Below, piece after piece: positions 6,001-62,847 of a stretch of 64,000 bases of DNA. Numbering within the stretch: the stretch's first letter is position 1; each line of letters starts with the position of its first letter. This DNA is from Ectocarpus siliculosus. Its lineage: Eukaryota > Sar > Phaeophyceae > Ectocarpales > Ectocarpaceae. Under the pieces are notes generated by a model. It had not been told where the DNA came from. It made no database searches and saw only the letters and a program-made list of their open reading frames with translations. A program made the translations under genes and the position numbers. Location of the stretch: NCBI GenBank assembly GCA_000310025.1, contig FN649738.1, positions 1,516,157 through 1,580,156 on the forward strand, written 5' to 3'.

Positions 6001-9000
6001 TAGAAGCCCCCCGCTCTGCATATGCATTCCGACGTATGAAGAGCCTCAAGCTTGCCAGCAACCACCTGATAAACTTCGAGGAGGACGCCGCTCTCGAGCT
6101 CACGTCGCTCGAACGGCTCGACGTTTCCGGTGCGTGTGTGGATATAGCGCCTTAGTCACGTTAGCCTTGCACGTTCGGCTAGCTTTAGCTTTACCTTGTG
6201 GATAGTGCGTCGGTCACGACAGCCTAGCACATTCGGCGATATTAGTCACCTATCCGGCTTGCAGCAGCGAAATGGTTATTGTCCCACACCAGAGACTACC
6301 GATTGAGTTTGAAGTTATAGCGTCCACGCTGAGATCTCTCGTGCTTGCCAGAATCCTGAGACCACGCTTTCGGCCCTCCGACCTCGATAGCCACCACCTC
6401 CAGAGCGTCTGTGGGGCGGAGCCCGAATCTGTTTCTGTGACAGCGAGTTCCGTAGAGAGTCCCAAGCTGTGCATGAACCCCGAAATACTTCGGCTTGGAA
6501 AGTGTTGCAGGTAAACACGGTGGTGCACGAGGATCCGAACCAAACTCGAGCACGTCTCGTTCGGTTGTGTCTTCCTAGTCGATCCTCTCTCAACAACTTC
6601 ATCAGTAGTCCTAGCCCAAACACTCGATGGAAACATGCCGACAACCCTTAGACCGCAGCTAACTGTGACTGCTGTGGCTATTGTTGGTAGCAATAAATGT
6701 GTTTTTGACTGTTGGGTTTGGAGCGTTCGCACTGCAGCGAACGAGTGGCTTATGTTGTTGAGTAGGTTGCTGGAAATTCCCCCCCTTTCGGCAGAAACGG
6801 CCCTTGCTGGCTGGGCCAATCGGTGCCCGGCTGATTCCTTAGCGTCTTGAGCCGCCTTCTACCGATCTTTTTGTGGACATCTGTCTCTCGGCGCAGCGGC
6901 TTCAGCCATGTTTCTTCAAAGCCTATGAGTATCGGGTAGACCGAAAGGCACTGGGGGCGACGCACTGGTTCGGTTGTCGCGACTCATTCTCTTCTGAGGC
7001 GGATATTTCAAGTCTTGCCTACCATTGGCTTCGGAACGAGTCTCTCTGTCTGCGTGATGATGCTCTGCAGATTAATGGCCGCAGACTTATTTGCTCATGT
7101 TCGTTGCTCATTGTTTGGCTCCCTGGTCAAACTTTCCACCTCGTGCCCTTTGCCCTTGTATTGCCACAGACAACGAGCTCGTTTCCATAGACTGGGTGGG
7201 GTTGGTAGAGACGCTGCGTTTTCTCGACTGTTCCAAGAACCGGCTCTCGGCCCTTCCTACCTTCGCTAGAGCCTTGGCCAACCTCCCTCGCCTGGCGGAA
7301 GTTATCGCTGAGGGAAATACGGTAGGCCGCGCATGAGCGACGCCTCTTGCAGTCTGGGCGAACGGAGATATTGCAGTGACTCGATGATTTGGTCGGCCCG
7401 ACCCAAAAGTAGGTTGTATAACGGGCCTCTACTTAGATCCCAATACAATACCAGCGATGCCATCATGAATCGTCAACGGTCCCAACAACCAGGGCAGCAG
7501 CCGCAGCAACAGCAGCACCAAAGGCTTGTAACCCCAAAGTTTCGCGCCGTGCCTTTTGGTTTTGCGAGACGAGTGTAGCGACTAGGCAGCCCTAGCCGAA
7601 AATACCACTGCACGACTCCAAGAAACCGAAACGGTTACTACGGCGATGCACTCCGCGCAATGCAGGTGGCGTCCCAACCCCAGTACCGCATCACAGTGCT
7701 GATGGCGTGCGAAAAGATTCGAAGGTTGGACCATCGGCCAGTAGACGGGGCGGCACTCAAGCGGCAGCTCCACCGCGCCACGGAGGCGAAGGCTTTGGCC
7801 ACTTTGCGAGAAACGGCCAACGAGGGTAAGACTGTCACATCCGCCCGCCCTCCCTCTTGTCTCACGTCCTGCCGCTTGTTTGCCACCCTCTGCCTTCTCT
7901 ACACCTCTGTATCTCTGGCTCTCTATGATTGAGCTTCTCATCAAATATCGTTGTCTTGAACGGGTCGAAAAAGTGTAGGTTGTACCTCCAGCGACTGCAG
8001 TCTGAATAAATGTGTTAAGGTAGCCGTAAAGACTGCTACTTCCCCGCCGACCGTACCTTCTACTGCTCGCCTGAGAACCAAGCCCATACGGCTGGTTGCT
8101 CGTTGTGCGCGTTGATATTGTTCGTTCACTTTCATGGTCCTGGGACTAAGAGTATCACCGATGTGTGGAGGGAGAGGGCATTCGCTTGGAGAGGCGAAAG
8201 TCAATCCTCAAGGCCCAGGAAAGGCAACTCGAGGACGCCTTTCAGGTGATGGGGCCCCCAACCATGACGTCACACCGCGTTCAAAAACAAATCTGGGGAA
8301 TAGGCATTCTTCAAAATCCGGCCAAATATGGGTGGGGTGTAAGCTAATTCAATTCGAAGTACGAGGAGAGGGCGATCGTTTTTCGGACAGTTCAAGGGGG
8401 ACTGTGTGAGGGGGAAATCTTGCGACGATTCTGGCGGCTAAGAGGATGGAGATGGTAAACACAAACCAGGCACGGGCTATGAATTGGATATGTGGTGGGC
8501 GTGATACGGCGAGGGAGAAGACGTGTACAGTATGCGTCACCACCTCAAAACCTCGTACTTTTGCACGAGACTCGTTGCTTATTCCTTCTGCGGGGTGACC
8601 CAACACCAAAAAATATACCTGGTAGGTGTTAGGCTTCATAGGACTCTTAACTTAGCAGCTGTTCTTATCGTCAAGCATATCGAGTTGTCTCTTTTTCTAG
8701 CCATGACTTTCTCAACACTCAGGTTCGCAGGTGGTGGTATGCACTGTACGGCGTGGCTGTCAACTTGGGGGATAACGTGTGATCTGGGGTTGGCAGGGGG
8801 GCAGCCGCCACTCACAAATAGCACAACGCTTCCGTGCTTTCTTGGGACCCGAGTGGGCGTTCGACGTGGAAAATGTGTCGCGGGATAGGGAGATTGGACC
8901 GACCGTGAACCGGTCTTCTCGGCCGGGCTCTTCGTTTGTGTTTGTGTGTTCCCGACTGCAGGGGTTTCGCCTTCAGAAGCAGCGGGAGATGGGGGAGTGC

Positions 9001-30000: not shown

Positions 30001-33000
30001 AGGTTATCTCAGGTCGGGGGCAAGAGAGGCGGCCGCAACCTACATATGTCACGACGTCGACCTACCGTAGACGCACGAGGAGAGGCTTACCTTCACCACT
30101 CGCCGAGTTTGGATGTAGCGGTCTCCCGTCTTCAAAGCCGCCGATGCGATGCCTCCCAGCCCTCCAACCATAGGAACGGCGGCAGACAGCAGTTTCAAGG
30201 CCTTTCCTGCCTGCAAAACAAGAAGAGCACATCGGGCTAAGACTGGGGTGCACGCGCCACATGCATCTCATACAACAAACACAAGGAAAACATCGAAACG
30301 ACAAATCAGGTCTCAACCCACAGCAGCGCTTACCGTGCCTATCCCACCGGTCTTGCTCGTGGCAACCAAGTTGCTGCCGACGACGCTGGAAGCGAGGAAC
30401 GCGTTGCATACGCCATCCCGGACGGCGTTGAAGTACGCCTTGCGCGCCTGCGACAAACCCTGCTCCCTCTCTTGCATCCACTGATCCTCCATGTGGCTGG
30501 ACTGCTCACCCGACCATAACGAACGGAGATTTGTTTCAAGAAGAGCGCACGCACAGGGCACGATTGCTCAACGCATGTTTGATAGTGGCCGGGACACAGA
30601 CTCTCTGCAAGGAATGGCAGTGACTGCTTTGGTGCGGCGTACTCAATGCGCACCACGTGGGATCAGCTAGATCGTGTCAGCTTAGCCCTTGCACACTGTT
30701 GCTGTGAGTCGAAATGAACGTTGTCCACACCGGGACACTCACAGCAATTTCGCTCAGAGTCGTGGCCATTTCCGCCAGCCTGTTGAGATCCCGAAGCTTT
30801 TCTTCGTCGATAGGCTCTGGGGCCGGAGAAACGCCATCAGCGGGTGGTGCCCTGATGGGTGGTGCTCTGATGAGCTGTTTGATCTCGTCCAGAGCCTCGC
30901 AATCCCCTTTAGTAAGCGCAGCCAAGCCCGCAAAGGAAGCGACTTGCTCCCCAAACGAGTGACCCGGGTCTCTCTCCTCCTCCGCTGGGCAAGAGGGTCC
31001 AGGGTGGACGATATCTGTTTCCACCGTCTCCGCGTCTTGTGATCGGAGGCTGTGCTGCGCAACATCGGCTTCCTCTTTTGGGTCATCGTGCTCAGCCTCC
31101 CGCTGCTGCTGCGGCTGTATTCTTGCCCTCCACGAGTCAAGATCCCCATGTTCAGGCCCGCCTGGGTCAACACAAAATGCAAGGCAAGCACAGATCTAAT
31201 ATGCCGGCTTTCTCGTTATTCCAGGCTCCGGCCGTTGGAGCAGTGTATGGTCGCGCACGTCAAAGATACGCCTAGCTACCTCGAGCTTTCCCACATCAAG
31301 CATGCCGTGTATTATTCTCAAGGGTATTTACTCGTCTCCATGTTTGAATGGACAGTAGCTGTTCGGATCTCCCCCGTTTGAGCGGCATTTCTCGTAGATC
31401 ACGATTCCTCTGATTCCTCTAGAAGGCCGATGATGAGGCCAGTACTCGACCTCGACCAACAGTGTACGCGCCGTCATGTTCGTTTTCGCTTCGATGTCCT
31501 TGGCCGAGAAATCACGATGGTATAGTAGCTCGCTCACAAAGTCGTCCGGCGTTTTCCCGCGGACAAAACGTCTTGTACACCTATCGGTTCATCTTGTTTT
31601 ACAAACACTTCGCAAATGCTGGGGTCATGGGACAGAGCCAATCAAACATGGAATCCACAGACACGCGCCGTGAATTGCCGTGTCTCTTCGTGTGTTTTGT
31701 AATTCGAAGACGTGGCCAACGCAAATCACATGGTGCATAAGTTCAATAGCGTCGACTCTATTGAACGTGCATCTTCCATGTGCCGCGACGAGTAGGCACG
31801 TGATCAAGAGGGCAACATTACCACTCACCCGTGATACTGCTGTTGTTGCTGAGGTCAAGCCTCTTCAACTCGCTGAGAGCTCTCAGCGCCTCAGGGATGA
31901 CTCCTGCACCAGCAGCCGACAGCAGCAACAGATGAAAAGGGAGAATTGTACCGTGTGTCTTTGCCAGTTCCACACAACAAGTGCCAGGCGTGTGTCTGGT
32001 GACTACGAAACATTAACGTTCTCTAGTGGTGAGATCAACATTTGTCAATAATCGACAAACTCTGCAGGTTCGCCAAGCTGAGAGGGACGGTATGCAGGTC
32101 CATGTGTGTGTGTGTGTGTTTTTGTACGCTTAATAGGCAACATACGAGGGTACCGACCAGGAGGCCGGGGGCGTGTGTTTTCTTATTTGTTCTTCGACTT
32201 GCGAAGAGTGCTCGGCCTTGCCCATCAAGGGATTCAGCAGTCTACTGGGAATCTCCATCACTGAAACTTGAAAAAAGTCAAACGTTACACGACACGCACC
32301 TTCCAGGTTGTTGTCGTTGAGCAGTAGCCCTCTCAGGCCTGTTAGGCCCCCGAGGCCCTCCGGCACGGTTCCTATGCGGGATGTGCAAGCCAAAGCGTTG
32401 GGACAGTGTCAATTTCGACGCGCCGGCCTCAATCTTCAAACGTCCCGTGAAGATACAAGAGGGGCCGCCTTCGCGAGAAATGCATTTTATGAGGAAATAG
32501 AACAGGGAGAGGGCGCACGCAGACCCGGTCCCTGACCCAACTTCCTCGATTGCATGCTTTATCCAACATGCCAACTTAAACGAAAAACCCTGCCAAGGCT
32601 GCAGCGCAAGAGTGGAACGGATATTCTAGAAGCCCAGCGCTCGTCGCATACTCAATGTCAGGGCTTGGCGCAGCCTGCACAAGGAGCTCGGGGACCTCGC
32701 ATCACCTACGAAGCTGGCGACGCTTCGTAGCGACAACGTGAAGCACGAGTATGAGAACGGCGCCTTCTCTCGAGACTGCCTTGGCAAAAATTTAACCCAC
32801 ACGTGGGTTGGCATCACAACTGACGAGCAGGGAGCAAATGGCAAGCCTGCCTCACCTGAGAGCTTATTGTTGCTGAGTCTAAGCTCTTTGAGCTTGCTCA
32901 GAGCTCCCAGAGCCTCCGGGATGGATCCTGCACGGTCCGGCACGACCACAAGCAATCGAAGGTGAACAAACGACGCGAGAAAAAAGATTGCTGTGACAAG

Positions 33001-36000: not shown

Positions 36001-39000
36001 CGCGATCGTTTTTTCGCTGTTGTTAAATTTACCAAACTTGTCCATGTCACACCCTCTCTGTCTCATTTCCTCCTCGAGATCCTCTCTTTCCTTCTTGTAC
36101 AACTCACACTCCCCAACTATGTGGGGTCTACTCTCCTCCGATTTGCCACATGGACATGTGTGTCTATCCTCCTCTTCCTCTCTCCTACGGCTGGTATACC
36201 TCTTCCTCCGTTCTGGCAAGTCCAGATCGCCTACTCGAAATTGCAATTTCAGCTTTTTCGCATTGTCCATGGGGCCGTCCAAGTACCTCTTCATCCCTAT
36301 CCATTCTTTCAACTTCCCGTATATCTCCAAGTGGTCTTCGCTTCGTACCTTCTTCCGAAGGGTTGCCTCCTCCCTACTCTCTAGCATCTCCATGACTTTC
36401 GTCTTGAACCCCCCGAACCCTTCCGTGTCCAACGTCTCCTCCTCGTCTCCTATCTCCTTCCAAACCTTCTCTACCACCTTGTTCCATCTGATTCCCTTCT
36501 TTCCTGGAGTCGCTTTTCCCCAAGCTGCGTTGTCAACCATGGCTGGTAGTCTATCGTCCGACATTCTACTTACCTTGTACTGCCAATTCAACTTCTGCAT
36601 GTCTCTCTTTGTTTTAAGAGAGTACATTCCCAATTCTGCTCTCAATACAGTGTTGCTCGTTGTACTTGAACATCCTAATATTTTCTTGGCCGCTGCCATC
36701 TGCACCGTTTCCAGCTGCTTGACGGCCTTTTCGTTACCTTCCCATACCTCTCCTGCATACTCTAGCTTAGGTACAATCACATTCAAGAGAATACACCTCT
36801 TAATCCTAGTGTCCAGGTGTGGGTCCGTAAAGATCTCGTCCATCTTGCCTATCTGAGCTTTTCCCTTCCCAATCAACTTCGCTATGTGTGCGTCCCATGA
36901 GCACTCCTTCGAAATCTCTACTCCCAGGTACGTATACTTGTCTACTACCGGTAGTTCTTCCTCCCCCCATTTCCGAAGCGAAAATGGGGGGGGGGCTTTC
37001 GAAAAGCATCCCGCGTGCGCGACACAGGACGTCTGCTTTCGGTGACACCGCAGGAAGCACCTTACCTACTTCGGTTCTTGTTTTCTCGTCCCTTTATATT
37101 TCTCCCTAAATATCTCTAAAAAAAACAAACAAACATATCTCACCCTTGAGCCGGTTATTGTTGAGCCCGAGCATTTTCAGCTCGCTGAGAGCTCCCAGCG
37201 CCTCCGGGATGGGTCCTGCACAGTCAACACAGCGACGAATTAGTGGAACGGGTGAGTGACATGGCAATCACCTTCTACACCACTTGTCCCGCCAACTCGC
37301 GGGCGGACATGTTGCATGGACGTGGTACACACTGGATAGAAACCTTAGACTAACACGTACAGGACGCGTTTTCGTCTACCTCACCCTAAGCGCAGGCGCT
37401 TCGGCGTAGGGACAACAATGTAGCTGAACCGTGAGTTGTCTATTGTTACACGGTTCCATCGTGTCTAGCTTGTAGAACACTTTATCGCTTACACGACGAG
37501 ATGAAAACGAAAACCCAACCACTTACTTCGACTTCTCGCGAGCAAAACTCACCACTCAGGTTGTTACCCATCAACATGAGGTACTCCAGGGCACCAAGCT
37601 GCCCAAGCTCGGGGGGAATAGCACCTGGAGCGGTCGAGCAGACCGAGTTCAGCAAGTGCTACACGGTATCAACGCGTGACATGTCCCGCGCCTTTCCAGA
37701 GCATCCACTCCGCTCTACCCAAGCGTTGGCGAACCTTCACTGCTGTTTGCACGCACGTCCATTTTCCCCTACGAGTTCGATCTTCAAGCAAGCCTAAAGA
37801 GCTCAGCCTCTCCTTTGCACGATCGGGTCAAACGTGAGGCTTTCTGCCACACAAGGCAATTTCGTCATCCTACACCAGTTGTTGATTCGCACGTTGGCGA
37901 AACAGACATTCCAAGGTCGAACTCTCGGTGAAAAGTTGGCAAGTTACACGTTGACCTGCAGGCGACATTACCGAAAGGAGCCCCATGCCACTGGGGCTGA
38001 GGGGATTGGGCGCTCCGCACAGTCCCGACCTCGGGGAAACACCCAGCCATTCGGCGACCTCGGCGCGACGGAATCATCGACTCACAAGAACGAAGCTGTT
38101 GGGCGAGACTCTGCCAGGTACAGTTCAACATGTCCGGCCGGTGCCCTTATCACGATTAGATGAGGCAGAAGCCATAAAAAACGAACAGAGCGCGGAAAGC
38201 TCTCTCAAAAGTAAGACAGGAAAAGCAGGGCTCACCGCTCAGCTGGTTGTTATTCAGCATGAGCTTCTCCAGCTTGGTGAGGACCCTCAGCGCCTTGGGG
38301 ATGAAGCCTGCACACGTAGCCAGAGCGGTAAATTTCTCACGAGATCAGTTCTACGACGATACCGGTGGAAGTTTTCTGATTGCAGGCATGAAGCACTCTC
38401 CCGCGGGGGGGCGGGAAAGCATGGACCACTCCTCTTACCCGTAAGCATGTTGCAGTCGAGTTGCAGTACCTCGAGCTCGTCGAGGGCCACCAATGCTTCC
38501 GGGATGGGTCCTGCGCAAGAAACACATGGGGAAACGAAGCGGAGTAGTTGAGAGGGCGTCTGATGTGAGCTATTGCGGACATGGGTCCCGAACTGACAGG
38601 TTCAGGTGTATGTATTGCGGCCCAAACCGTCACGATTGCATGAATTCGGTGCTTGTTTCCGTTGCGCGGAGCGCTAGGCGGACGTTCGTAGATGAGCCCC
38701 ACCAAAACGCGTTGGTGGGACGTATTTTCGAGAAGCTCGGGCGACATGTCTACAAGAGCCGAAACTTCACGGACAGGGCTCAAAGGCACAGCAGATGCGA
38801 CAAAGACGGAGAGGACAACCCCTGTAGGGGAGTCAACCAAAGCCCACTGGGTCCGTGTGGGGCCGGTTCGAAGTTGAGACCGAGACGGATAAACGACGCA
38901 TCAGAGCCCTGCGAAAGAGGAACTAACCCTACCCCCTAGCATAAACACGGAGAGACCTCTTCACAAGCTAAATAGATGGGGTCAAGCCGAAAGAGCTTGG

Positions 39001-39600
39001 TAGAATGCAAAAACAGGGAATATGTCCCTATATGCTGTCTGGGAAATCGTAGACATACAGGTACTTTCTGACGCTATGAATTCATTGCTAATCTGTCTCA
39101 GACTCTTTTCTACGATAGAGATGGATTCGTTGTGTCATATTAAGAAAAATAAATAAAAAAACATTTTGAGGGAGCGTTATCATATTTACCGCGTGTTGAT
39201 ATATACATACGGGTTGCCAACACGTATTCCGGACAAGCCCAAGAGAAGACGGAGTGCAAAACACGGGGGCGCAGAATTAAACTTCGTGGATCCCTTGCAA
39301 AAAAAAAATGCACACTCAGTGACCTTTCGACTTCGGTCGACGAGTCAGCCAAGATATGCCAGCCAATAGAACGTGCGAGAGCAACAACCATACCATTATG
39401 GGGTGGGCCACAGTACCTCGAAGGTTGTGTAAACCCAGTTGCAGCTTTACAACGCGGCCCCTTTCGTTGACATCGACCCCATGCCATGTCCCTAGCTCAG
39501 CATCTGTGTCCCAGTTGTCGTTGCATGTCCAGGTAGCCCCATTGGTGGAAATGAACAGCGCAACCAGCGCATCGCGATCGGTCGAAGCCGCACACGGAAC
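27027..39600 (-). CDS. LRR receptor-like protein with unknown helical C-terminal region
   Basis: Exons in coding order: LRR N-cap 39600-39417; LRR exons 38510-38439, 38307-38236, 37624-37553, 37215-37144, 35706-35635, 34091-34020, 32927-32856, 32371-32300 and 31903-31829; C-terminal exons 31161-30743, 30501-30334, 30210-30091, 29942-29813, 29307-29168, 28991-28899, 28503-28240, 28090-28030, 27688-27611 and 27164-27027. Together they give about 815 codons, all in phase. The N-cap reads DRDALVALFISTNGATWTC. Each LRR exon encodes one plant-type repeat, for example PIPEALGALSELKMLGLNNN. The C-terminal region opens with GGP..GDLDSWRARIQPQQQ, then acidic sequence, a helical part with a glycine-rich hydrophobic stretch (AAVPMVGGLGGIASAALK), IADIARDAVECCSLARRLAL, and a charged coiled-coil-like tail (AALMGEIQSLRVSLDDSNAK; DEWIEYKERQAEIDR). 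No GTPase, NB-ARC or kinase motif was seen. Candidate function is recognition of non-self or developmental ligands (inference). The start exon and the last exon are missing from the model. Confidence 0.72.
31330..31590 (-). CDS. Unexplained protein-like open segment inside LRR-gene intron
   Basis: Within the intron between the last LRR exon (31829) and the first C-terminal exon (31161), the minus strand is open for about 85 codons. It encodes a protein-like stretch: KTPDDFVSELLYHRDFSAKD, then VEVEYWPHHRPSRGIRGIVI, then CRSNGGDPNSYCPF and a stop. It has no LRR pattern and is not needed to join the flanking exons. It may be a retroelement fragment, an alternative terminal exon, or chance. Confidence 0.3.
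32040..32098 (-). pseudogene. Decayed LRR exon
   Basis: The minus strand reads TVPLSLANLQSLSIIDKC followed by TGA. This keeps the L..L..L..L spacing of an LRR but has no acceptor AG at the expected place and a stop before the asparagine/leucine end. It lies between the intact exons 32300-32371 and 31829-31903. Confidence 0.5.
35190..35480 (-). CDS. Protein-like ORF inside LRR-gene intron
   Basis: About 94 codons on the minus strand encode FQRDAAAQLWFPGDRNYPPF, then DLRAPIDDLLASEEEEKSG and VLRQEVAMLHRRLSRKFVEL, ending EVPGEHIAEIPFTN and a stop. Composition and periodicity look coding, and a helical segment is likely. It lies between the LRR exons 35635-35706 and 34020-34091 and is not part of the repeat reading frame. 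An AT-rich CTATAAATATG lies just upstream. No family is recognised. It could be an inserted gene fragment or part of a transposon. Confidence 0.3.
35778..36995 (-). mobile_element. 5'-truncated LINE with target-site duplication
   Basis: The element body is 35798-36977 on the minus strand. It is flanked by GCGAAAAT followed by a G run, at 35778-35797 and again at 36978-36995, which I read as the target-site duplication. The open frame (about 36980 to 35803) encodes the C-terminal part of a non-LTR retrotransposon polyprotein: KYTYLGVEISKECSWDAHIA, LEYAGEVWEGNEKAVKQLET, and a zinc-knuckle-like CPCGKSEESRPHIVGEC. The reverse transcriptase and endonuclease are missing because of 5' truncation. 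The frame of over 350 codons is intact, so the insertion is fairly young. It sits in an intron of the LRR gene, between the exons 37144-37215 and 35635-35706, in the same orientation as that gene. Confidence 0.85.
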
Positions 39601-40469
39601 CTACCGGGTGTGCAAGGGCGTCGAACAACGGCGAGAAAGACGGCAGTACGCGCGGTAAAAACGGAGAGCACGATATGTGCCCGTTGGTATCACAGCTGAC
39701 TACCAATGTTGTCGTTCGTGGCTGACGAAACGCGCGAAACAGTGGGTCTACAGACAATCGTCGGTGAGTGGTATTTCGTTGACATGGTTTCGGTCTGCGT
39801 GTTTGTTCTAGACGGCCTGACAACGGCGGCTTCCGAATCTCACCAACGTAATTTCTGGCGCCAGAGACTCCACGCGTGGCCCGTCACGCTTGGCTTCCGA
39901 CCGGTCTAGACTCTCGCTCTCCACCGATTCTTCTGACACGCGCCAAGCAAGAACGGAACCAACACGTTGGTTTCGTCTGTAGTCAGGTTCCAGTCGTGCG
40001 GACTACCGCGCATGCGTCGTACGTCTCATCTCCTACTATGCCAAACCAGACAACTTACGCTGCGCCGTCTCTGCCAAGACTGCATCATCATGAGAACAAA
40101 AGGAGCAAAGCTTCAATCCCACAACATGATATAGTGTTGGGCCACCAACACCTTGCCGTCAGCTTGGTTTCGACGTGATTCTGCTAAATAGCATGGGTCT
40201 TGCTGATGCATGTTTAGTCTGTCCTGCAAATCCCACCCCCCCTGGATGGGACTCTCAAGCCCTGCTGCGCAAATGCGGAGTGGAGTCGACCAGTGAGCTT
40301 TTGCCAAGGAGAGAAAAGCTACTCTCTGGGTTTCCCACGCAATCTTCCCGGCACGTGAAGTTAACAGTTTTCGCGGATCGTGTCCCGCCAACTGATAGGC
40401 ACGACGAAAGATCGACGGTTTTCCACAAACACAACGAGGGCGACAAGCTAAGGCAAGACCTCCCCCTAC

Positions 40470-42594
40470 CCGCAAGCAGGTTGTTGGAGACTCGAAGAAG
40501 CTCCAGCTGGCTGAGACCTTTCACCGCTTCGGGAACCGATCCTGTAGAAATGACAACGCGGCAAAACACAAAAATGAAATGAAAGTATTTGTTGATGAAG
40601 GTTCTAGACCATGTCGTCCAACCCACGCGATTCCCATTCTATCGTATACACGCTGGACTCGGTAGTCCTTCGCCGCAGGTCCCAACTATCTCCGAGGTTG
40701 AGCAGTTCGGTGTTCTTACGCGATTCATGTTGGCTGGGAGTCATTGGAGAGGTAAATATACTCCGTGAGGCAGGGCATTGGTCGGCGTGTATTCCCACAA
40801 CAATTGTCCCGCGCAGGCCGTGAGTGGAAGGCACGCCTAAACTTCTCGGAGTATCAACGTTTAACATTCACCTGTCAGACGGTTGTCGTTGAGGAACAGA
40901 ACAGTGAGCGCTGTAAGACGCTCCAGCTCCTTTGGTATTGCTCCTGCGCACAATGCGAGCAAATGGAAAAGGTCGCACAGAAAAAATTTGCAGCAACTCT
41001 TGGTGGGTGCAGCAGGACACGAAACTTGGCTGAAATTATGTTTGTCCCCGTTGAGCTCGGACAACTTGGTACCCTTTCAGGAACTCGTGATGGCTGCAGG
41101 ACGGCGAATAGCCTGGCTGGTGGGTGGGGGCTTCTGCTGACAAAGTTTTGTGGATGTGCATGCATACGAGGAAGGGCGAAGAACCTGTACCCAGCTGGTC
41201 TACAGCAACCAGAAAACCGGTTCACAAAAGCCCGCTTAATTCGAACTCACCGCTCAGCTCGTTTTTCCAAAATGACAGCTTTTCCAGGGAAGAAAGGTTT
41301 CCCAGGTCAGGAGGGATGGGACCTGAACACACGCGAAACATCAAGTCAGCTCCGCGGAAACAAGGACCAGCCATGCCCTCACTAACGTGCACGGCCGGGA
41401 CGCGACGATCTACAAATGTTCACTTTTGGTGACACAACGAAAGCTTCCTTCGCACTTTTGGACGCTCGATATGCTCGACGATCGCTGTGCTGGCGAATCT
41501 TCCTGGACGGCCGCAACAACTCAACACCTTGGAACGAACGGATCGAAAATTGCGCACAGGTTACAGCAGAAAGTGAATTCGAACGGGACAGGTTTCTCCG
41601 CGGTCAGGATGCACCCAACCCACACGCGGGCGGGTCACAGCATGATGGTCGTGGCGCCAACGGACCGAGTCGCGGTTTCAAGCACTCACCGCTAAGTTTA
41701 TTCCAAGCCAGCGAGAGGTGTCGAAGGGCCCCAAGCTTCCCAAGCTCAACAGGGATGGTACCTGCGGCGAGAGCCAGCCCAGAGACCGGAGCATATCCGA
41801 AATTGGGTGATCGTTTAGGCTTGGTTTTGAGGGCAACAATCAAGTACTGGCGATAAAATAGTACAAAGATCAATCCCGCAAGAGCTGGGAGCAGAGATTG
41901 ATCAACACCTGTAGAGCAAGAGGCAGGCCAGATAGGGGTATGCATACATGAGCTGCGACTGTTTCCTCCTCTTAGAACTTAACTACGCCACGTTTACCGC
42001 GCGAGTCTATCCTACGCACCCCTTGGTGGCCACGACACGCTAGAGTCGACACAGACGAGTCCCTGAGGGAATTCCTGCGCCCACACACAGCAGGAATGTC
42101 CGGCTTTGTCTTCATCAGACACTTCGCCTGTAGGGAGATTGCACCATAGACTACAGGCTAGCTGGTCTGCCAGGGGATCAACTACCCAGTCTGCTGGACC
42201 CCTGCAGAATCGGTGCTCGGCCGGGAACATCTAGGTTATCAAGCAAGACCATGATAAGGCCTACGAAAGGAACGACGCCGAAGGTGTCTTGTCACCCTTA
42301 CGGCAGTTTCAAAGACCCAACTTCATTTGAATCGTACTTAGAGGGGGTAACAAAAATCGTATGGCAGGCCGCAAGTCTCAGGGAGGTACGTAGCCCAAAG
42401 GGAATACCTCGGAGGTTGTTGTCCGACAGATCTAGCTCTACGACGCGGCCCTCTTCGTTGACTTTGACCCCCTTCCATGTCCCCAGCTTAGCAGACGTGC
42501 ACCAGTTGCTCTTGCGCGTCCAGTTATCCCCGCCCGTGGCATGAAACAGCGCAACCAGTGCGTCACGGTCGGGCGAAGCCATCGGCGGGGGAAC
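40470..42594 (-). CDS. Tandem LRR gene copy B, partial
   Basis: It has an LRR N-cap exon 42594-42408 (MASPDRDALVALFHATGGDN; VELDLSDNNLRG) followed by four single-LRR exons of exactly 72 bp: 41761-41690 (TIPVELGKLGALRHLSLAWN), 41322-41251 (PIPPDLGNLSSLEKLSFWKN), 40943-40872 (AIPKELERLTALTVLFLNDN) and 40541-40470 (SVPEAVKGLSQLELLRVSNN). All are phase 1 with good splice sites. No copy of the C-terminal exon set was found before the next N-cap exon at 39600. Either this copy is truncated or its exons are spliced into the downstream copy. The N-cap exon follows an acceptor, but also contains an ATG that could serve as start. Confidence 0.65.
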
Positions 42595-43240
42595 CTGAGG
42601 GGAGCGCGCGCGGGGAAACGGGACATTCAAAAGCCTGGACGTTCGCTGCCCTGCACCGCCGTGTCGAAATGCTCGGGAACGCGTCCCGAAAAGCAACGGT
42701 GGCCAATCAGAAACCCTCGCGGGCTGCCTTTTTTGTCTCTCGTCCACTCGGGAGAGACAACCCCGCAAAATCACCATCTTGCTCAGGGTGCGTCGTTCGG
42801 TCGCACCGCGCGGTCTGGCTCCGGCCTCAGCTGGATGCACGTCCTCTTCCAAAATCATCTTGTTTTCACCTCAAAACAATGTCTTGCCTTCCCTCGAACG
42901 AGAGAGGGTATCGCCGCTGCCCTGTCAAGCGTGCCGGAGGACTGGAATGCCCACTTTCCATGGAGGCGTTTTCGTGCCAGGCGCAGAGAGGCGAGGCTCG
43001 AAGCCGGAGGAACGCGGGCACTACGCCCGCGTCCGCCCCCCGCGACGACGACGACCAAAACCCTCTACAGTACCAATGGAGTCGATGTCCTCACGTTCAA
43101 CGATGTACGTACTGCTGTGTGCAGCGCACGGCGCTTCTAATATACCTGCGCATAGCACCGTGGACAATATCGTGTCCGGTTTCTTCAAGGCGTAGCTGTT
43201 GTGTGGTTGGGTAGGAGAATACAAGGCCTCCAAACTGTAC

Positions 43241-46200
43241 CTCTGGTTGGGGGGTAGCGGTGACGACGACCTGCTGCTGGTTCCTTAGTCTTGTCCTCCA
43301 CGAAGAAATGCTCTCACCCAACTTCGGCCCTCCTGGTTCACGCAAAAAACAACAGGCGGGGGCAAAATAAGCACCCAGGCCATCACAATTTGCGCTACTC
43401 ACTCCCACTCTGCCCCTGGTGGTCGCCACCATGTGCCCGCCAGGTGTTTTTCATGGAGTACGGAGCTTATATCTGCATTGTATCACAGAGTTGGGGCCAC
43501 CCTCTGTCGTTTCCGTGCTTGGGGTCTCGTCCCCTCTTGTCCGAGAGCGGCCTAAGGATTACGCCCTGTAATGTACTGGGACGGGGAATGAGCTGCGTTG
43601 AAAGCTGAGGACACCCTGGCCAACTCTGAGTTTATTCTACAACATAGCAGAACAAGCCGATCTGCGCGGACCTTGCCCGTCCAGTGCGCAAGCGGATCAA
43701 AGTCACTACAGTCAACTCACCCCTCAGATAGTTCCCGCCGAGCTCGAGGTATCTTAGAGCGCGTATATCGCCTAGCTCCGGCGACACAACCCCTGTTTTG
43801 GATTAGGTGGCGGCGGAGAAATGGGTGCATCGGATATTGCCGACATTTCACGGAGGTGTAAATCCGAACTGGCTCGTTTCGTGGTCAATCATCGCTCGCA
43901 GGTTTCTCAATACCCTACGGTCTTTGCCCTTTCTCTGAACCGGTGTCAAACAGGAAGATTCCCCCGGAGTCCATGCCTTCAATTTCATTTTATTCAGACG
44001 GGTCGCGCAGTTCTATTTTTCCCTTGCCAACCCTCAAGTCGGCCTTCTTGCATACCAGGCACTCTAGACTCAAGATACATCGTGTTGCGAAGAACGCCAC
44101 GCCGGGACTTGCACCCTAGGCCTCGACTATGCAAAGGTGTTCAGGATAGCTCAAGACCGGGAGCGTGACCCGTGCCAGCCTTGATTCGTGTTATCTAGCG
44201 TCCTGTTCTAAGATGCTCCTAAAATACACATACGCATCTAACTCCTTCTGCACTCACCGCTGAGCTGGTTCGCCTCTAGAATGAGAACTTGAAGTTCTCC
44301 TAGGTTGGCTAAGGTCCACGGTATAGACCCTGTGGGACAAGCGAAAGGCGGAGTGAGGAAATCGCTGTTCCTGCCAACACGGCTTCGACTGCTACATCAG
44401 TGTTGTTTCAAGGTGGCCGGGGCGGGCAGAAGGCAATCGTTTGTTTCGCAGGTGCGGTTCGCGGAGAGATCCGCCGTCAGCTTGCTCGGATGACTCGACC
44501 TCTCCCACACGCAGGTCAGGTGTTCAAAACCATTGCAGTACACGTGAGGCATTCCATGGACGCCCAACGCCCACGCCTGGTTTGTAGAACTCGATTCCCC
44601 TGGCGAACGAACGGCGAAATACACGCCCTTTACCTGCTCACGAAACAATGACACGGTGTGTACCCCCACCCATAGGCGACCGTGGGCGCTATGCGCTATC
44701 TCCGTCGAGGACAAACCAGTTGAGCACCGATGGCATGGTCTGGGGACAAGCGTTTTCTTCAAGAAAGTGTTTTCCACCCGCTGCTGCAGGCAGAGCGGGT
44801 GCTGCAAGAAGAAGCGGGGATCGCGTGACCAGCTAAAGTCCGTCGTAGTCAACGTTACCTTCAAGCTGGTTGACGTTGAGCAATAAGGGTCTTGAGCATG
44901 CTGAGATTTCCCACAACACAGCGGAATAAATATCACCATCATGTAACGAAATGGATCTTAGCAACGCTCTAAGGAAGCGAAGGGACCACGGTCGAGGTTT
45001 AGCACAGCACTCGGGTCCCAAACCCCGAGCTGGATGAAGGAACATAGAGCAGCGCGTGGGTGTCACCATTTCACGCAGGTTCCGACCTCTTTGACCCATT
45101 TCCCGCTGCCAACATGCTCTACAATCCGTGCCTGCGGCTTGAACGAAGCACGCCTTGATCACTGTGGCGGATTCATTGACACACTCTCGAAATGCCACCA
45201 CGGAAGTACACCGGACAAGCGGCGGAACTCAGTAACAACGACATTGACAGTTTTCTATTCGTTTGCAACTGTTGGAATATGCAAGTGGCGATTCCGGAAC
45301 TCACCAGACAGTTTGTTATTCGAGAGGTCGAGATGTTCCAAAGCATCGAGCGTGCCTAGCCCTGCCGGGATAGTACCTGTGGCCGAAGGGTACAGACACA
45401 GAGAGGCAATAATTAGAACAGTTTGAGCCTCCGGCCTTGGACATGCGTGTCTCTCCTGCCTGCTATTCCGCCAGCGGTTTTCTTGAACAGCATCCATCGC
45501 CGAGGTGGTGGGGGGGTCTGGTCTCACCGAGTCGAGAATCTATGCCTTAGCGTGTGGAAGCATAAGCTAGAACCGGAGTCCTGCCAACGAACACAGCGCG
45601 CACTCGTGAAGCTGGCGGCACACTCTTGAACTTCGGCCGCATGGACACTTGAGAGAGGAACATCGGGTGACCGCAGGCACAGGTGGCAGCAAGAAACTCA
45701 ACCGTCCGTGTTGATAGACCCACGCGGGGCAGGTACGTGGTAGAGCATGGCTACGTGACAGACGGAGAACCATCAAAAGCCCCGCAAGATAAGACGGACA
45801 AGGGGGCCTCACCGCCCGCACTGTAAATCCCAAGAGAAACGCATACCTAGCGTGAACCGCGAGTGTACAAGTAACGGGCCGATAATGTAGGCGGCGAAGG
45901 GTTCCGATCCCTGCACGAAGCATACATACGTTGAGTGGCTTTGACGAAGCGGCATCGTGCGCACGTTGTGCAGGAGTTGCAACCGTGCTGAAAAACGCTG
46001 TTTTGACAAACCAACCAGAAGAAGTTTGAGATTGTGATGCGTGTAAACACAGCAAAAGCGCGATAAAGAGGCAACCTAGGTGCGTAGTCTCCAAAAGGGC
46101 CATTTTAGAGGGAAGGTCCAGCGGAAATGAGCGATCCACGAGGTTAAACAGCGTACCTTGAAGGTTGTTTCCGCGGAGGTCTAGCTTCACCACGCGACCT

Positions 46201-46343
46201 TGTTCATTGACTTCGACCCCAAACCATTCCTGGAGCTCAACGGGGGTGCACCAGCCGTCTCTACGTGTCCATCCATCCCCTTGGGTCAAACGATACAGCG
46301 CAGTCAGCGCGCCATAGTCGACGGGAGCCAACGTAAACGGGAC
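43241..46343 (-). CDS. Tandem LRR gene copy A, partial and possibly decaying
   Basis: The N-cap exon is 46343-46157 (187 bp, the same length as in copy B; YGALTALYRLTQGDGWTRRD). LRR exons are 45376-45305 (TIPAGLGTLDALEHLDLSNN), 44329-44258 (SIPWTLANLGELQVLILEAN) and 43792-43721 (VVSPELGDIRALRYLELGGN), each 72 bp and phase 1. A further exon 43332-43241 (GGPKLGESISSWRTRLRNQQ) matches the first C-terminal exon of the downstream gene (GGPEHGDLDSWRARIQPQQQ). The other C-terminal exons are absent before copy B begins. One LRR exon at about 44.87 kb is frameshifted. The ATG seen in copy B's N-cap is TTG here, so this copy needs an upstream start exon or is broken. Confidence 0.6.
44850..44915 (-). 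pseudogene. Frameshifted LRR exon
   Basis: The minus strand begins GNLSMLKTL in one frame and continues LLLNVNQLEG in another, so a single-base change splits the repeat. A plausible donor (GAAG|GTAACG) follows. The acceptor AG expected at the 5' side is not seen. It lies between the LRR exons at 45305 and 44329 of copy A. Confidence 0.6.
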
Positions 46344-49244: not shown

Positions 49245-50504
49245 AGATACTAACATTGTCTACGAGGGGGGGTGCGCGGACGATTAATTTGCGATTGAAG
49301 TTTCTGGAGTTAATAAATTGGAAAACTTAGATATGCAGGCGTTTCCTAGATTTTGAAGAGGAAAACTGCGATCCCCACGACCTATAATAGTAGGCTAAAT
49401 ACTGCTGCTAACTATGCATACATACAAGAGGTTTTGTTTGCTTGATTTTTCTTTCAATATAGTATTAGTAACTGCTTTAGTACAAGCAAGCCTGGTCCTC
49501 GACAAAAGTCGCTCCTCTTGCTGTAAGACTGCGACCCCGCACCACGACAAAGTGGCAAGTGGCACGCACCGAACAACAAACACGCGTGCAGTGGGACCGC
49601 GCGTGTCCGCGACTTGCTTGATATTTTCGGTGATGTATCCGTAGGAACGTAGCAGTATGTGCTGCTGTGGGTGGAGTGGGTCCTCCCCCCCTCCTGTATT
49701 GCCTTGGGGGTTGGTGTTGCTCCCCGCCGATGTTGCAACAGAACAGGTTGTTGAAGGGTGAATGCACAAAAGGCTGAACGTGGAGACCGATCCTCCACTA
49801 CCATTATAATATTGACGACTACAATACGCACAACTTCTGCTGATACTGCCGCGGGATTGGTCCTGAGAGAGATTCTCTGACTGACTGCTCCGTTTACTGC
49901 ACAGACAGTACTCAACACCAGATACACGTACAGCAGTCCAGTCTACTGCTGCTGTAGTCTACACATCGGCTGCACTGCTGGATGCCGTACACACTGCGGC
50001 TCGTTCAACTCGTTAGACAGAGATTTCGAACGGAAGTTCTTCGGTGTTGCAGTCGCTGTGTTTGTTTCGAAACTCTCCGGGTTCCTCGCCGGCCGCTCGT
50101 CAAAGTACCGCTGCTGCTGCATCTTCGTCTACCAGACTGCTGTGCATCCACATCGCAAAACCGCCCCCTCTGCTCACCTTCGGCGTTCGTTTCTTGGCCT
50201 TCCAAAACTTATCCAGTACACCTATCATGTTTCTCCGAAGCACTCCCTTCTCCCGCTCTCCCCCCCCCCTGCCTGTGGCTACTGGGCTGTCAGTGTCGCT
50301 CTCTCTCACCGGCTGTTACTTTGTCTCTCACACGTCATTATAAAAAAAAAATCGTTGCCCAATCACAGGAACCTTAACCTTCCTTGGTTCGGTCCCATGA
50401 AATTTCATTCTGATCGCTCTCGGGTCCCGGGTGTATCGATGTATGCACGTGTGCATATCACGTTGTACTTAGTGCACTTTACGGTCCCGATAGTGCACAC
50501 TCTG

Positions 50505-60183: not shown

Positions 60184-62847
60184 CTACACATCTACCCGGC
60201 AGACCGCCTCTGCAGCGGCCTGGATTTGCAAGGCGGGGTAGCCCGCCTGGCATAGCGTCGCCAGAGAACGGACGTACGTAAGGCTGAAGTCGTTCCAGGG
60301 ACCACAGCTAGCAATGACGGCCGTGGAAGCTGCCTTGAGGCAGGAGTGCTCGGTAAAAACTCCGGTGAGAGGCGGTACGGGGGCTCCACCTGCACGCACA
60401 CGGGGTAGGGTAAAGGGCACAAAACATCGATACGGCACGACGCGCGTTTTTCTCAAAGAGTGTCTCGCCTCGCCACGCTCGCCTTACAAATGTTGTAGAG
60501 CAAATCCTCTGTTTCATTGGAGTTCGAATGTCTTACGTGGCACACGCTTAAAAAAAAAACTGCCCGAAGAATGAGTGAATGCACGTTTCGAAGCAAAATC
60601 TCATCGCTTACCGGACGTCCTCGTTGAGATTTCCCCGAAAACCTTTGCGGAGTGAAACCTCATGGCCATCTCCTCCGCGATCTGTCGGTCCAAGTTGTCG
60701 GCTTCACGCGTCCTACACCCCAGGCATAGTTTGCAAACACGAAGGAATGCGGGCATAGGACAAAGTTTGGTGTCAGCGCAAGGGTCAACCATGTTGGTAA
60801 TGCGACGCACACACTCATGTACTGCGGCCATATACATAGAGCTCCAGCATGCTCTAATGTTTTCCACGCCATCAACGAAACACGATCGAAAGGGCAGATC
60901 ACGTGCAACGACAATTTGACCCCAACTCGACTCCACACGCGTTCGCGTGTACAAATAGTAAGTGGAAGCACGACGCACGTTTGAGAGGAGAGAGGAGGAC
61001 TTAACATGACCGCGGCGTTCCCGGGGCGAAACGCCACGCACACCTCCGCACGCGGGGTACACGGTTAAACATGTAGGCTCACGTCGGAAAAACGTTTCAA
61101 ATTTGACCGACTCTCGAGCACTCACTCAAAAGTCGCAGTTCAGCAGGTGATCAACAAGCGAATCTACGAATCGTTTCTTCTATATTGCACTCTCAGCGTT
61201 GCCGTACTCTCTCGTGCGCAGGCCAACTTCTGTACGTGCACAAGCAGCTCGGAAGCACGACCTAGCATTCTCGTGGTCCACATACCTGCCGGTGCCTGCT
61301 AGTTGGGAGCGCTGATAGCGAAGATCATGCAGCTTGATGTCCCTCGAGTTAACTCCGTTCTTCGGTGTTGGTATGCGGGCAACCGCCGCCGCTTGATCTC
61401 CGAACTCGCCTCCTTCAACAGAGGGAAACCCAACAGCACCCAGGAACCACTCGATGTGGTCCGTCCCCATGCTAAGGGTCCCAAACTGCGGGGACACAAC
61501 AGGCGGTCGGTGTTGCGACGAGAGAGGACAAGCTGGGACAACCGGCGTCGAGGGATATCGTCCAAGCGCGCCAGCGCAGATTCAATACAGCAGGGAAAGT
61601 AAGAATACACGGCACCTCGACATGTGGGGATGTTCCTGCGGATGTGTGTCTCACGACAAAAGCGTGCTCGCATGTATAGCATTACTCCGGCCGCACGCGT
61701 CCTCCCTCGACCGGCGGAATGGCCTCACTTTCTGCGCGTGGCTCTTGGACGTCTCGTTCTTGACCAACGCGAACTGGGAGTCCAGCGTCTCGGTGTGAAA
61801 CATGGAGGGCTCGTCGCTGTTCTCGAGGAAGTTCACCGAGTACAAGTCGCCGAGGCAAGACCCGATGAGCGTCCCGTTCACAGAAGACTCCATGCCGCAG
61901 TACGTCCCGTAGGAGCTCTCTTGAGAGTTAGCCGCGGTCGTGGCGTATATGTTGGCGTCCTCGGGAAGGAGGCCCTCGAACATAGAACCCGACTCGCACG
62001 CCTCCATGTAGAACACCAGCTCCTTGTACATACCGTTCGTGGACATGTGCCGCAGGGCATCGATGAGATCTTGGGCGTAGACCGGGTCGCCAGCGGGCAT
62101 GGCCACCAGCCCCACCCCGCCGTGATCCGCGAAGTAGACGAACACTCGGTCCTCTTTCGTGCTCCGCAAAACCGGTTTCCCCTCTTTCGACCAACGGGTG
62201 TCAAAAAGGGGTGGTTGGGAACGGTTGCGAACGGGTTAAAAAAAGATGCAGGCAGCCTCAGCGATTGACTTCTGCGCCCTCTCATGTGTACGAACCTAGA
62301 GATCCCAGCATTCCTAGAGCCTTTGGACAGGCGGCCCACTCACCGCGTGCGTCTGCAACAACGCCGCCAAAACGGATAGCACGCCTTCCCGACGCAAGGC
62401 TGGCGCTGAACTCCGTACACATCTGGGCTAAAGACAGCCTCCCGTGCCGGTTGCGACCTCGTTGGCCCAGGCACTAATCCAATCCACCCACACGAACTTG
62501 CGAACGCCGGAAAAGAACCATGGTCAGCACATGCAGTGGAGTCAGCACCTACACATGCCACCGACGACTACACCTCCGACAACGGAGGGAAGGGCACCTG
62601 TGGTCTTGTTGTCTCCCTTGAGAACCGCCAGGAAATTGTCCGCGGTCACGTCCTCCCCCGTGTACGATGGGCTGCACGCTCGGTTCACGTCGTATCCGGC
62701 AACGCCATCCGGCGTCGGCTTGTTGAACAGCTGCCCTGGGAACGGGTTGTCGACGCTGTCCACCGCGTCGCCGTAGGTCATGAGAATTACGTTTTCCGCC
62801 GGGATGCCGTTCCGACGCACGACATGATACGCGTGGCAAACATCCGC
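60184..62847 (-). CDS. Legumain (asparaginyl endopeptidase), N-terminus missing
   Basis: Exons in coding order are 62847-62598, 62183-61729, 61485-61286, 60712-60612 and 60359-60184, 393 residues plus stop, all in phase. It is a C13 cysteine protease that cuts after Asn in vacuoles or lysosomes. Visible are ADVCHAYHVVRRNGIPAENV, the PSYTGEDVTADNFLAVLKGD segment, the catalytic His in VYFADHGG, the catalytic Cys in YMEACESGSMFEG, and YATTAANSQESSYGTYC. A prodomain-like C-terminus follows (NSRDIKLHDLRYQ; EHSCLKAAS; VRSLATLCQAGYPALQIQAA). That C-terminus separates it from GPI8 transamidase, which shares the active-site motifs. The N-terminal exon with the signal peptide and the NYRHQ-like segment should lie above 62.85 kb but was not found before the repeat at 63.6 kb. 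Confidence 0.9.

What the first reader, a model, noticed from the sequence alone, without database searches (positions are those of the whole stretch)
31829..45376. LRR array built from 72-bp, phase-1, one-repeat exons
Fifteen LRR exons are exactly 72 bp and one is 75 bp, and every one starts and ends in phase 1. Any exon can therefore be added, lost or moved without breaking the frame. Such one-repeat exons are reported for Ectocarpus LRR receptors and proposed to support exon shuffling. The repeats here differ strongly at the variable positions between the conserved leucines.
Basis: partly seen in the sequence, partly recalled or inferred. Interest (0 to 1): 0.8.

Follow-up and report, generated by a model that had tools for sequence, protein, structure and literature searches.

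The report
Three-part LRR gene of brown algae
A brown-alga gene builds its protein from one-repeat LRR exons in three separately capped blocks joined to a tail of unknown function; the exon design is already known in this lineage, but the repeat faces thought to bind partners are nearly frozen between species instead of diversifying.

Summary
Observation confirmed: 15 LRR exons of exactly 72 bp plus one of 75 bp, all phase 1 in and out, minus strand; the strict scan finds none on the plus strand or in 50 shuffles. But they are neither one array nor a whole gene. Orthologs from other Ectocarpus species show one 33-exon gene, 50228 to 26530, 1196 aa: three blocks, each an N-cap exon plus 3, 4 or 9 LRR exons, joined by two linkers, then a conserved C-terminal region without Pfam family. 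It is not LRR-ROCO: no Roc domain. The C-terminal family has 13 loci in this genome. As far as the ortholog predictions reach, LRR content and order differ by one exon, probably lost here. The four concave positions reported as positively selected in ROCOs are, as a group, the least variable exposed positions between orthologs (3/64 versus 35/160 columns, p=0.001); a sibling gene varies more there (8/36 versus 2/64, p=0.004). The 72-bp exon design is published (PMC11378527). Not found in print: this family, its phase 0-0 blocks, the conserved concave face. Function is inferred.

The parts
50178..50228 (-). first coding exon, MIGVLDKFWKAKKRTPK, phase 0 out
   Evidence: tblastn of the P0001 and P0004 N-termini, sequence, model
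46157..46343 (-). N-cap exon A (187 bp, phase 0 to 1)
45305..45376 (-). LRR exon A1, 72 bp, phase 1-1
44258..44329 (-). LRR exon A2, 72 bp
43721..43792 (-). LRR exon A3, 72 bp
43241..43332 (-). linker exon 1 (92 bp, phase 1 to 0; GGPKLGESISSWRTRLRNQQQ..)
   Evidence: tblastn of P0001
42408..42594 (-). N-cap exon B (187 bp, phase 0 to 1)
41690..41761 (-). LRR exon B1, 72 bp
41251..41322 (-). LRR exon B2, 72 bp
40872..40943 (-). LRR exon B3, 72 bp
40542..40871 (-). intron in which P0002, P0003 and P0004 carry an extra LRR; no trace of it found here
40470..40541 (-). LRR exon B4, 72 bp
39844..39932 (-). linker exon 2 (89 bp, phase 1 to 0)
39417..39600 (-). N-cap exon C (184 bp, phase 0 to 1)
38439..38510 (-). 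LRR exon C1, 72 bp
38236..38307 (-). LRR exon C2, 72 bp
37553..37624 (-). LRR exon C3, 72 bp
37144..37215 (-). LRR exon C4, 72 bp
35635..35706 (-). LRR exon C5, 72 bp
34020..34091 (-). LRR exon C6, 72 bp
32856..32927 (-). LRR exon C7, 72 bp
32300..32371 (-). LRR exon C8, 72 bp
31829..31903 (-). LRR exon C9, 75 bp (one added codon; the P0003 protein lacks one residue here)
30743..31161 (-). C-terminal exon cA (linker-like start GGPEHGDLDSWRAR.., acidic stretch, start of the conserved region)
30334..30501 (-). C-terminal exon cB, conserved region
30091..30210 (-). C-terminal exon cC, Gly-rich hydrophobic stretch
29813..29942 (-). C-terminal exon cD
29168..29307 (-). C-terminal exon cE1
28899..28991 (-). 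C-terminal exon cE2
28240..28503 (-). exon cF, long predicted helix, coiled-coil-like
28030..28090 (-). exon cG
27611..27688 (-). exon cH
27027..27164 (-). exon cI, second long predicted helix
26530..26564 (-). terminal exon GSVLSSRRGKG and TGA stop
   Evidence: by likeness to the C-termini; end coordinate read

Best explanation
This is one intact gene, very probably of Ectocarpus siliculosus (minus strand, 50228 to 26530, 33 exons, 1196 aa). Shown by sequence: three consecutive LRR blocks, each with its own N-cap exon (phase 0 to 1), a run of one-repeat exons (phase 1 to 1; 3, 4 and 9 of them) and a following exon that starts in phase 1; the first two blocks end in a linker exon (phase 1 to 0), so a block with its linker is a phase 0-0 unit. 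Then comes a conserved C-terminal region, predicted helical, with long coiled-coil-like helices. Inferred mechanism: the block was multiplied inside the gene, giving three separate LRR solenoids on one chain, probably in the cytosol. Their concave faces hold conserved partners (an endogenous protein or an invariant ligand), and binding is passed to, or scaffolded by, the C-terminal region. So it works as a fixed-specificity multi-partner LRR receptor or scaffold within a family in which at least one member varies more.
For: Exon borders and phases. Single-gene structure in predictions P0001, P0003, P0004 and, partly, P0002; P0001 has the same length, 1196 aa. The three N-caps lie 3.0 and 3.7 kb apart, the only same-strand N-cap matches of 65 in the genome search within 15 kb of each other. 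AlphaFold2 of P0001 shows three LRR stretches (60-151, 225-333, 412-649), the third with block pLDDT up to 96. Concave positions: 3/64 variable columns versus 35/160 at other exposed positions over five sequences, Fisher p=0.0014; 2/64 versus 25/160, p=0.011, in the four-species set. Contrast with the C33 sibling in the same species: 2/64 versus 8/36, p=0.0039, other exposed 25/160 versus 12/90, p=0.71. C-terminal family: 33 matches at 13 loci here, also Pylaiella and Sphacelaria. No signal-peptide-like hydrophobic N-terminus.
Against: No transcript data, so splicing and expression are unproven; the orthologs are themselves gene predictions. dN/dS could not be measured. The C-terminal model is poor (mean pLDDT 51), and the full model has mean pLDDT 60.5 and pTM 0.36, so the arrangement of the blocks is unknown and parts of the N-caps are below pLDDT 50. 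A hydrophobic Gly-rich stretch at residues 848-870 (Kyte-Doolittle up to 1.6) leaves membrane association open. Within the sibling gene alone, the excess at concave sites is not significant in the four-species set (8/36 versus 12/90, p=0.28) and only marginal with E. fasciculatus added (14/36 versus 19/90, p=0.047).
Confidence: 0.6

Rival explanations
1. Combinatorial receptor: the symmetric LRR exons are alternatively spliced (Dscam-like), giving many LRR combinations from one conserved gene, as reported for brown-algal ROCO genes.
For: Every LRR exon is phase 1-1 and individually skippable, and a block plus linker is phase 0-0. PMC11378527 reports splice variants with different LRR combinations for Ectocarpus ROCO genes (passages, section 15).
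Against: The 16 repeats are kept in the same order in the four ortholog predictions as far as these reach (P0002 lacks A1 and most of A2 at its start), and their concave residues are conserved. Conservation does not exclude alternative splicing, and no transcript evidence for this gene was available.
Confidence: 0.2
2. Rapidly evolving pathogen receptor with ongoing exon shuffling.
For: One exon differs between species (present in P0002, P0003, P0004; absent in P0001 and the window). LRR exon numbers differ among four sibling loci by the motif scans. Some exons look like intragenic copies (C4/C9 78%, C4/C7 75%).
Against: One gain or loss event among five sequences. Concave positions differ 2.1% between orthologs versus 9.8% at other exposed positions and 25.6% in the coiled tail. 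The gene's self-matches (blastn, E up to 1e-3) are confined to exons and a few flanking bases, which speaks against recent duplications.
Confidence: 0.12
3. An LRR-ROCO GTPase whose ROC-COR part was missed.
For: Same kind of N-cap and same 72-bp LRR exon design as ROCO genes.
Against: 0 of 54 Roc matches of the genome search lie on the window's contig C13. hmmscan of the 1196-aa product gives LRR families and a few weak hits below cut-off, no Roc; the control P0030 gives Roc at 6.7e-17.
Confidence: 0.02
4. Three tandem genes or gene fragments rather than one gene.
For: Three N-caps, while of the 12 other loci of the C-terminal family 9 have one N-cap match within 30 kb upstream and 3 have none.
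Against: Linker exons join the blocks in frame in the window and in the ortholog predictions. Two- and four-block relatives exist as single predicted proteins (P0020, P0025).
Confidence: 0.06

Closest known systems
Brown-algal LRR-ROCO GTPases (Zambounis 2012, known to me only through citations and recall; Teng 2024, PMC11378527)
   Same: N-cap of the same kind and 72-bp exons with nucleotides 3-71 encoding one 23-residue LRR
   Different: no Roc domain; three capped LRR blocks; unrelated C-terminal region; conserved rather than diversified concave positions between orthologs
Non-ROCO 72-bp-exon LRR sequences of Saccharina japonica, described as mostly LRR-only (PMC11378527, section 15)
   Same: 72-bp LRR exons outside ROCO genes
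   Different: here a conserved C-terminal region, without Pfam family, is shared by a gene family; whether the Saccharina sequences have it was not tested
[quoted passage not shown] not read)
   Same: repeat-based candidate receptors of brown algae; predicted protein P0027, species not named, has TPRs before the C-terminal region found here
   Different: no NB-ARC match in this protein
Tetrahymena LRR genes with 90-bp phase-2 exon arrays (PMC6564038, passages)
   Same: one-repeat exons of fixed length in one phase, arrays of variable number
   Different: 90 bp not 72 bp, other phase, ciliate, far more genes
Plant-type LRR ectodomains such as FLS2, MIK2, GSO1, BRI1
   Same: among the best PDB sequence matches of the family profile's LRR part; same repeat type
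   Different: no kinase domain match and no signal-peptide-like N-terminus here; the likeness is of repeat type, not a shown common origin

Membership tests
Brown-algal one-LRR-per-exon genes | 72-bp exons, nucleotides 3-71 encoding 23 residues with LxxLxxLxxLxLxxNxL | tested here: met
   15 of 16 exons are 72 bp, one is 75 bp; all phase 1-1
LRR-ROCO GTPase | C-terminal Roc (and COR) domain | tested here: not met
   no Roc match on contig C13 (0 of 54); none in hmmscan of the product; COR was covered only by that hmmscan
LRR-ROCO GTPase | N-terminal LRR domain with the shared N-cap | tested here: met
   N-caps of ROCO proteins P0029, P0030, P0034-P0036 align with the window's, best identities about 0.6
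LRR-ROCO GTPase | diversification at LRR positions 14, 16, 18, 19 (reported from PAML site models in PMC11378527) | tested here: not met
   ortholog columns 3/64 variable versus 35/160 at other exposed sites; protein level, not dN/dS, and between orthologs rather than between repeats
NB-ARC-TPR | NB-ARC ATPase and TPRs | tested here: not met
   no match to either at E up to 1
LRR receptor kinase | protein kinase domain | tested here: not met
   no kinase match
LRR receptor kinase | signal peptide and transmembrane helix | tested here: inconclusive
   basic, non-hydrophobic N-terminus; best 19-residue hydropathy 1.6 at residues 851-870; no dedicated predictor run
Somatically assembled or alternatively spliced receptor | different LRR combinations in transcripts or cells | not testable with these tools
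   no RNA or somatic DNA reads available

The most novel reading that the evidence does not exclude
Brown algae have a receptor class, separate from LRR-ROCO and NB-ARC-TPR, defined by a lineage-specific C-terminal signalling region onto which different recognition halves (72-bp-exon LRR blocks, or TPRs) have been joined. Modularity works at two levels: single LRR exons (phase 1-1) and whole capped blocks (phase 0-0), with 1, 2, 3 or 4 blocks in different genes. The window gene is the frozen, fixed-ligand member among siblings that vary more, which would make the proposed adaptive use of one-repeat exons testable inside one gene family. (Lowered from 0.35 on re-checking: the TPR, two-block and four-block members are single predictions from species that the database does not name.)
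Probability: 0.3. Interest if true: 0.7.

Novelty: new variant of a known kind. Interest (0 to 1): 0.5.

Why it matters
The published suggestion that brown algae may run an adaptive-like immune repertoire rests largely on one-repeat exons and on selection tests of their LRR positions, which as I read the passages were made on alignments of repeats. This locus separates the two questions. Its repeats differ strongly from each other at the concave positions, yet each repeat is conserved at those positions between species. Repeat-against-repeat comparison can therefore look like diversification in a gene that is stable. The family also offers a natural experiment: same exon design and C-terminal region, different conservation of the concave face.

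Tried and rejected
Rejected: one continuous 16-repeat array (N-caps B and C and two linkers interrupt it). Rejected: three separate genes, my own first reading (note), until the orthologs showed linkers. Rejected: a C-terminal exon at 27236-27429 with a stop, replaced by 27027-27164 and 26530-26564 after comparison with orthologs. Rejected: ROCO.

Led nowhere: Pfam and NCBIfam on the C-terminal region (weak hits below cut-off, and LRR-type matches in P0006 and P0007; a precomputed PF28159 label on P0008 did not come up, where the library may be another version). Foldseek of the low-confidence C-terminal model (no match at E up to 0.001). PDB sequence search with the family profile: of 404 matches the 60 shown are LRR proteins, best stretches at profile positions 249-532. 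Zambounis 2012 is not held. The ROCO comparator gave a single ortholog pair (P0029 against L063): by hand count 3 of 16 concave and 4 of 40 other exposed positions differ, too few to use. Exon nearest-neighbour analysis over 45 exons of six loci: nearest exon in the same gene in 18 or 20 of 45 depending on ties, against 8.9 by label permutation of the 20 (p=0.001); suggestive of intragenic copying, not decisive. The exons of the other loci were those passing my motif scan, so shorter or odd repeats were left out, and for the added codon of C9 was dropped.

Paper use: PMC11378527: outline and abstract, passages, sections 10 and 15. PMC6564038 and PMC3268121: passages only. All others: search listings. 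The statement that this family was not found in print rests on six searches of an open-licence library that lacks most subscription journals.
Full report
What is there. On the minus strand the window holds 15 exons of exactly 72 bp and one of 75 bp, each encoding one LRR of the GxIPxxLGxLxxLxxLxLxxNxL type, each bordered by AG and GT and each entering and leaving in phase 1. A strict motif scan finds 15 such 72-bp exons on the minus strand, none on the plus strand, and none in 50 first-order Markov resamplings of the gene.

Three N-cap exons lie in the locus (46157-46343, 42408-42594, 39417-39600). A protein search with the downstream region found predicted orthologs in Ectocarpus sp. 6 (P0001, 97% over the searched region), sp. 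12 (P0002, 90%, partial), sp. 4 (P0003, 86%, partial) and CCAP 1310/34 (P0004, 85%), and a C-terminal part in E. fasciculatus (P0005, 80%). In P0001, P0003 and P0004 the three N-capped blocks are one protein, joined by two linkers; P0002 begins inside block A. Both linkers, the first exon and the 3' exons were then located in the window. The resulting model has 33 exons, 50228 to 26530, 1196 aa, the same length as P0001 (32 exons, the terminal exon; length).

Two levels of modularity. Phases are: first exon 0 to 0; N-cap 0 to 1; LRR 1 to 1; linker 1 to 0. A single LRR exon is a 1-1 unit; a block with its linker is a 0-0 unit. N-caps B and C still match at DNA level (77.9% over 149 bases), so these two are copies. 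Of 65 N-cap matches in the genome search, the window's three are the only same-strand ones within 15 kb of each other. Of the 12 other loci of the C-terminal family, 9 have one N-cap match within 30 kb upstream and 3 have none. Other relatives have one block (P0007, P0016, P0023, P0026 of Ectocarpus, P0017 of Pylaiella), two (P0020) or four (P0025); the last two are EukProt predictions without a species name in the output. In a small N-cap tree those of P0020 and of P0025 group by protein (support 0.98 and 0.81), and the window's three group together with little support (0.20), which suggests repeated, separate block duplication. AlphaFold2 of P0001 gives three LRR stretches, the third at blocks up to pLDDT 96, then a low-confidence helical region; overall mean pLDDT is 60.5 and pTM 0.36, and parts of the N-caps are below 50, so the model does not show how the blocks sit to each other.

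Not a ROCO. The Roc profile finds 54 matches in this genome, none on the window's contig. The product matches LRR families and a few weak hits below cut-off, no Roc, kinase, NB-ARC or TPR, while a control ROCO (P0030) matches Roc at 6.7e-17. By position, 12 of 65 N-caps (the window's three included) have the C-terminal region downstream within 30 kb, and 9 have a Roc match within 16 kb; the other 44 were not assigned.

The C-terminal family. Three conserved exons of this region (140 residues) find 33 matches, which I group by hand into 13 loci: five on C13, six on C30, one each on C33 and C15. A second search found relatives in Pylaiella, Sphacelaria and EukProt records. The predicted protein P0027, species not named, has TPRs before the same region; P0018, likewise, carries a precomputed PF00790 label in front of it, so some of these joins may be prediction errors. 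No convincing Pfam or NCBIfam family was found for the region, and in the PDB profile search the matches shown were LRR proteins (60 of 404). The structure model is weak (mean pLDDT 51, all helical; Foldseek nothing at E up to 0.001). The genome is very probably Ectocarpus siliculosus: P0016, named so by its source, lies on a contig of 4,484,617 bases, the length of G000 contig C33.

Exon gain and loss between species. Block A has 3 LRRs and block C 9 in the window, P0001, P0003 and P0004; P0002 is cut at its start and shows only the last of block A. Block B has 4 in the window and P0001 and 5 in P0002, P0003 and P0004. The window's 330-bp intron at that place shows no trace of the extra repeat. 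A tree of the C-terminal part rooted on E. fasciculatus gives ((window, P0001) 89, (P0002, P0004) 99) 83 with P0003 outside, so loss in the ancestor of the window and P0001 is the shortest account; the LRR part instead groups P0002, P0003 and P0004 (99, unrooted), so a gain there is not excluded. The 75-bp exon lacks one residue in P0003. So one-repeat exons can be gained or lost in frame, but this was seen once among five sequences.

Conserved concave face. I took the four positions that PMC11378527 reports as positively selected (14, 16, 18, 19) as given. Between repeats of the window gene they are among the most variable positions (mean pairwise difference 0.75-0.95). Between orthologs they are nearly fixed: 2.1% mean difference, against 1.3% at scaffold positions, 9.8% at other exposed LRR positions, 6.2% in N-caps, 9.1% in the C-terminal domain and 25.6% in the coiled tail (P0005 has no LRRs and was left out). 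As columns it is 3 of 64 against 35 of 160, Fisher p=0.0014. This holds for the group: single other positions (11 and 13) are as invariable. In the sibling gene on C33, compared in the same four species, 8 of 36 concave columns vary against 2 of 64 here (p=0.0039), while other exposed columns do not differ between the genes (12/90 against 25/160, p=0.71). Results against a simple contrast: inside the C33 gene the concave excess is not significant in those four species (p=0.28) and only marginal when E. fasciculatus is added (14/36 against 19/90, p=0.047). These are amino-acid counts, not dN/dS.

How it most likely works (inferred). A protein without a signal-peptide-like N-terminus, with three separate LRR surfaces and long helices at its end, most likely holds conserved partners or a conserved ligand and passes or organises this through the C-terminal region. 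The Gly-rich hydrophobic stretch at 848-870 could touch a membrane; this was not tested further. Immune receptor, developmental receptor and scaffold remain open.

Known and new. One-repeat 72-bp LRR exons, exon shuffling and splice variants are in print for ROCO genes of brown algae, and non-ROCO sequences with such exons are mentioned as mostly LRR-only in Saccharina (PMC11378527). Fixed-length one-repeat LRR exons also occur in Tetrahymena (90 bp; PMC6564038 passages). What I did not find in six searches is the C-terminal family, the multi-block architecture with its 0-0 unit, and an ortholog-based look at the concave positions.

Noticed in passing
window 35803-37065 (-), intron between LRR exons C4 and C5: 420-aa open frame of a high-copy repeat: 627 first-look candidates, 150 scored and all 150 matching, many at 92-99% and many at 58-62% identity; no Pfam match at E up to 0.01. 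It looks reverse-transcriptase-like to me by eye, untested.
   Followed up: partly
P0027 (EukProt g9314.t1, species not named): The same C-terminal region after TPRs instead of LRRs in a predicted protein, which suggests swapping of recognition halves, or a prediction error.
   Followed up: partly
P0025 (EukProt g4840.t1, species not named): 1417-aa relative with four N-cap plus LRR blocks whose N-caps are 65-83% identical to one another, a separate and probably younger block multiplication.
   Followed up: partly
L062 (IMG/VR contig IMGVR_UViG_3300028822_000328), 949-1125: A contig filed as viral encodes an N-cap relative at 50% identity; it may be a virus with a host-like LRR gene or a misfiled contig.
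   Followed up: no
window 61651-62235 (-): Part of a Peptidase_C13 (legumain-type) gene, E 1.5e-55.
   Followed up: no
window 5670-6155 (+): Part of another LRR gene (LRR_4 and LRR_8 matches) on the plus strand.
   Followed up: no
genome contigs C13 (1.36-1.55 Mb) and C30 (0.24-0.82 Mb): Two clusters holding 5 and 6 of the 13 loci of the C-terminal family; several matches include one stop (also one in the window's own copy, where it is intron), so read-through into introns is likely and decay was not tested.
   Followed up: no
one search hit list: No E. siliculosus protein of the searched size came up for this gene although other Ectocarpus species have one; its public annotation may be split or absent.
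   Followed up: no
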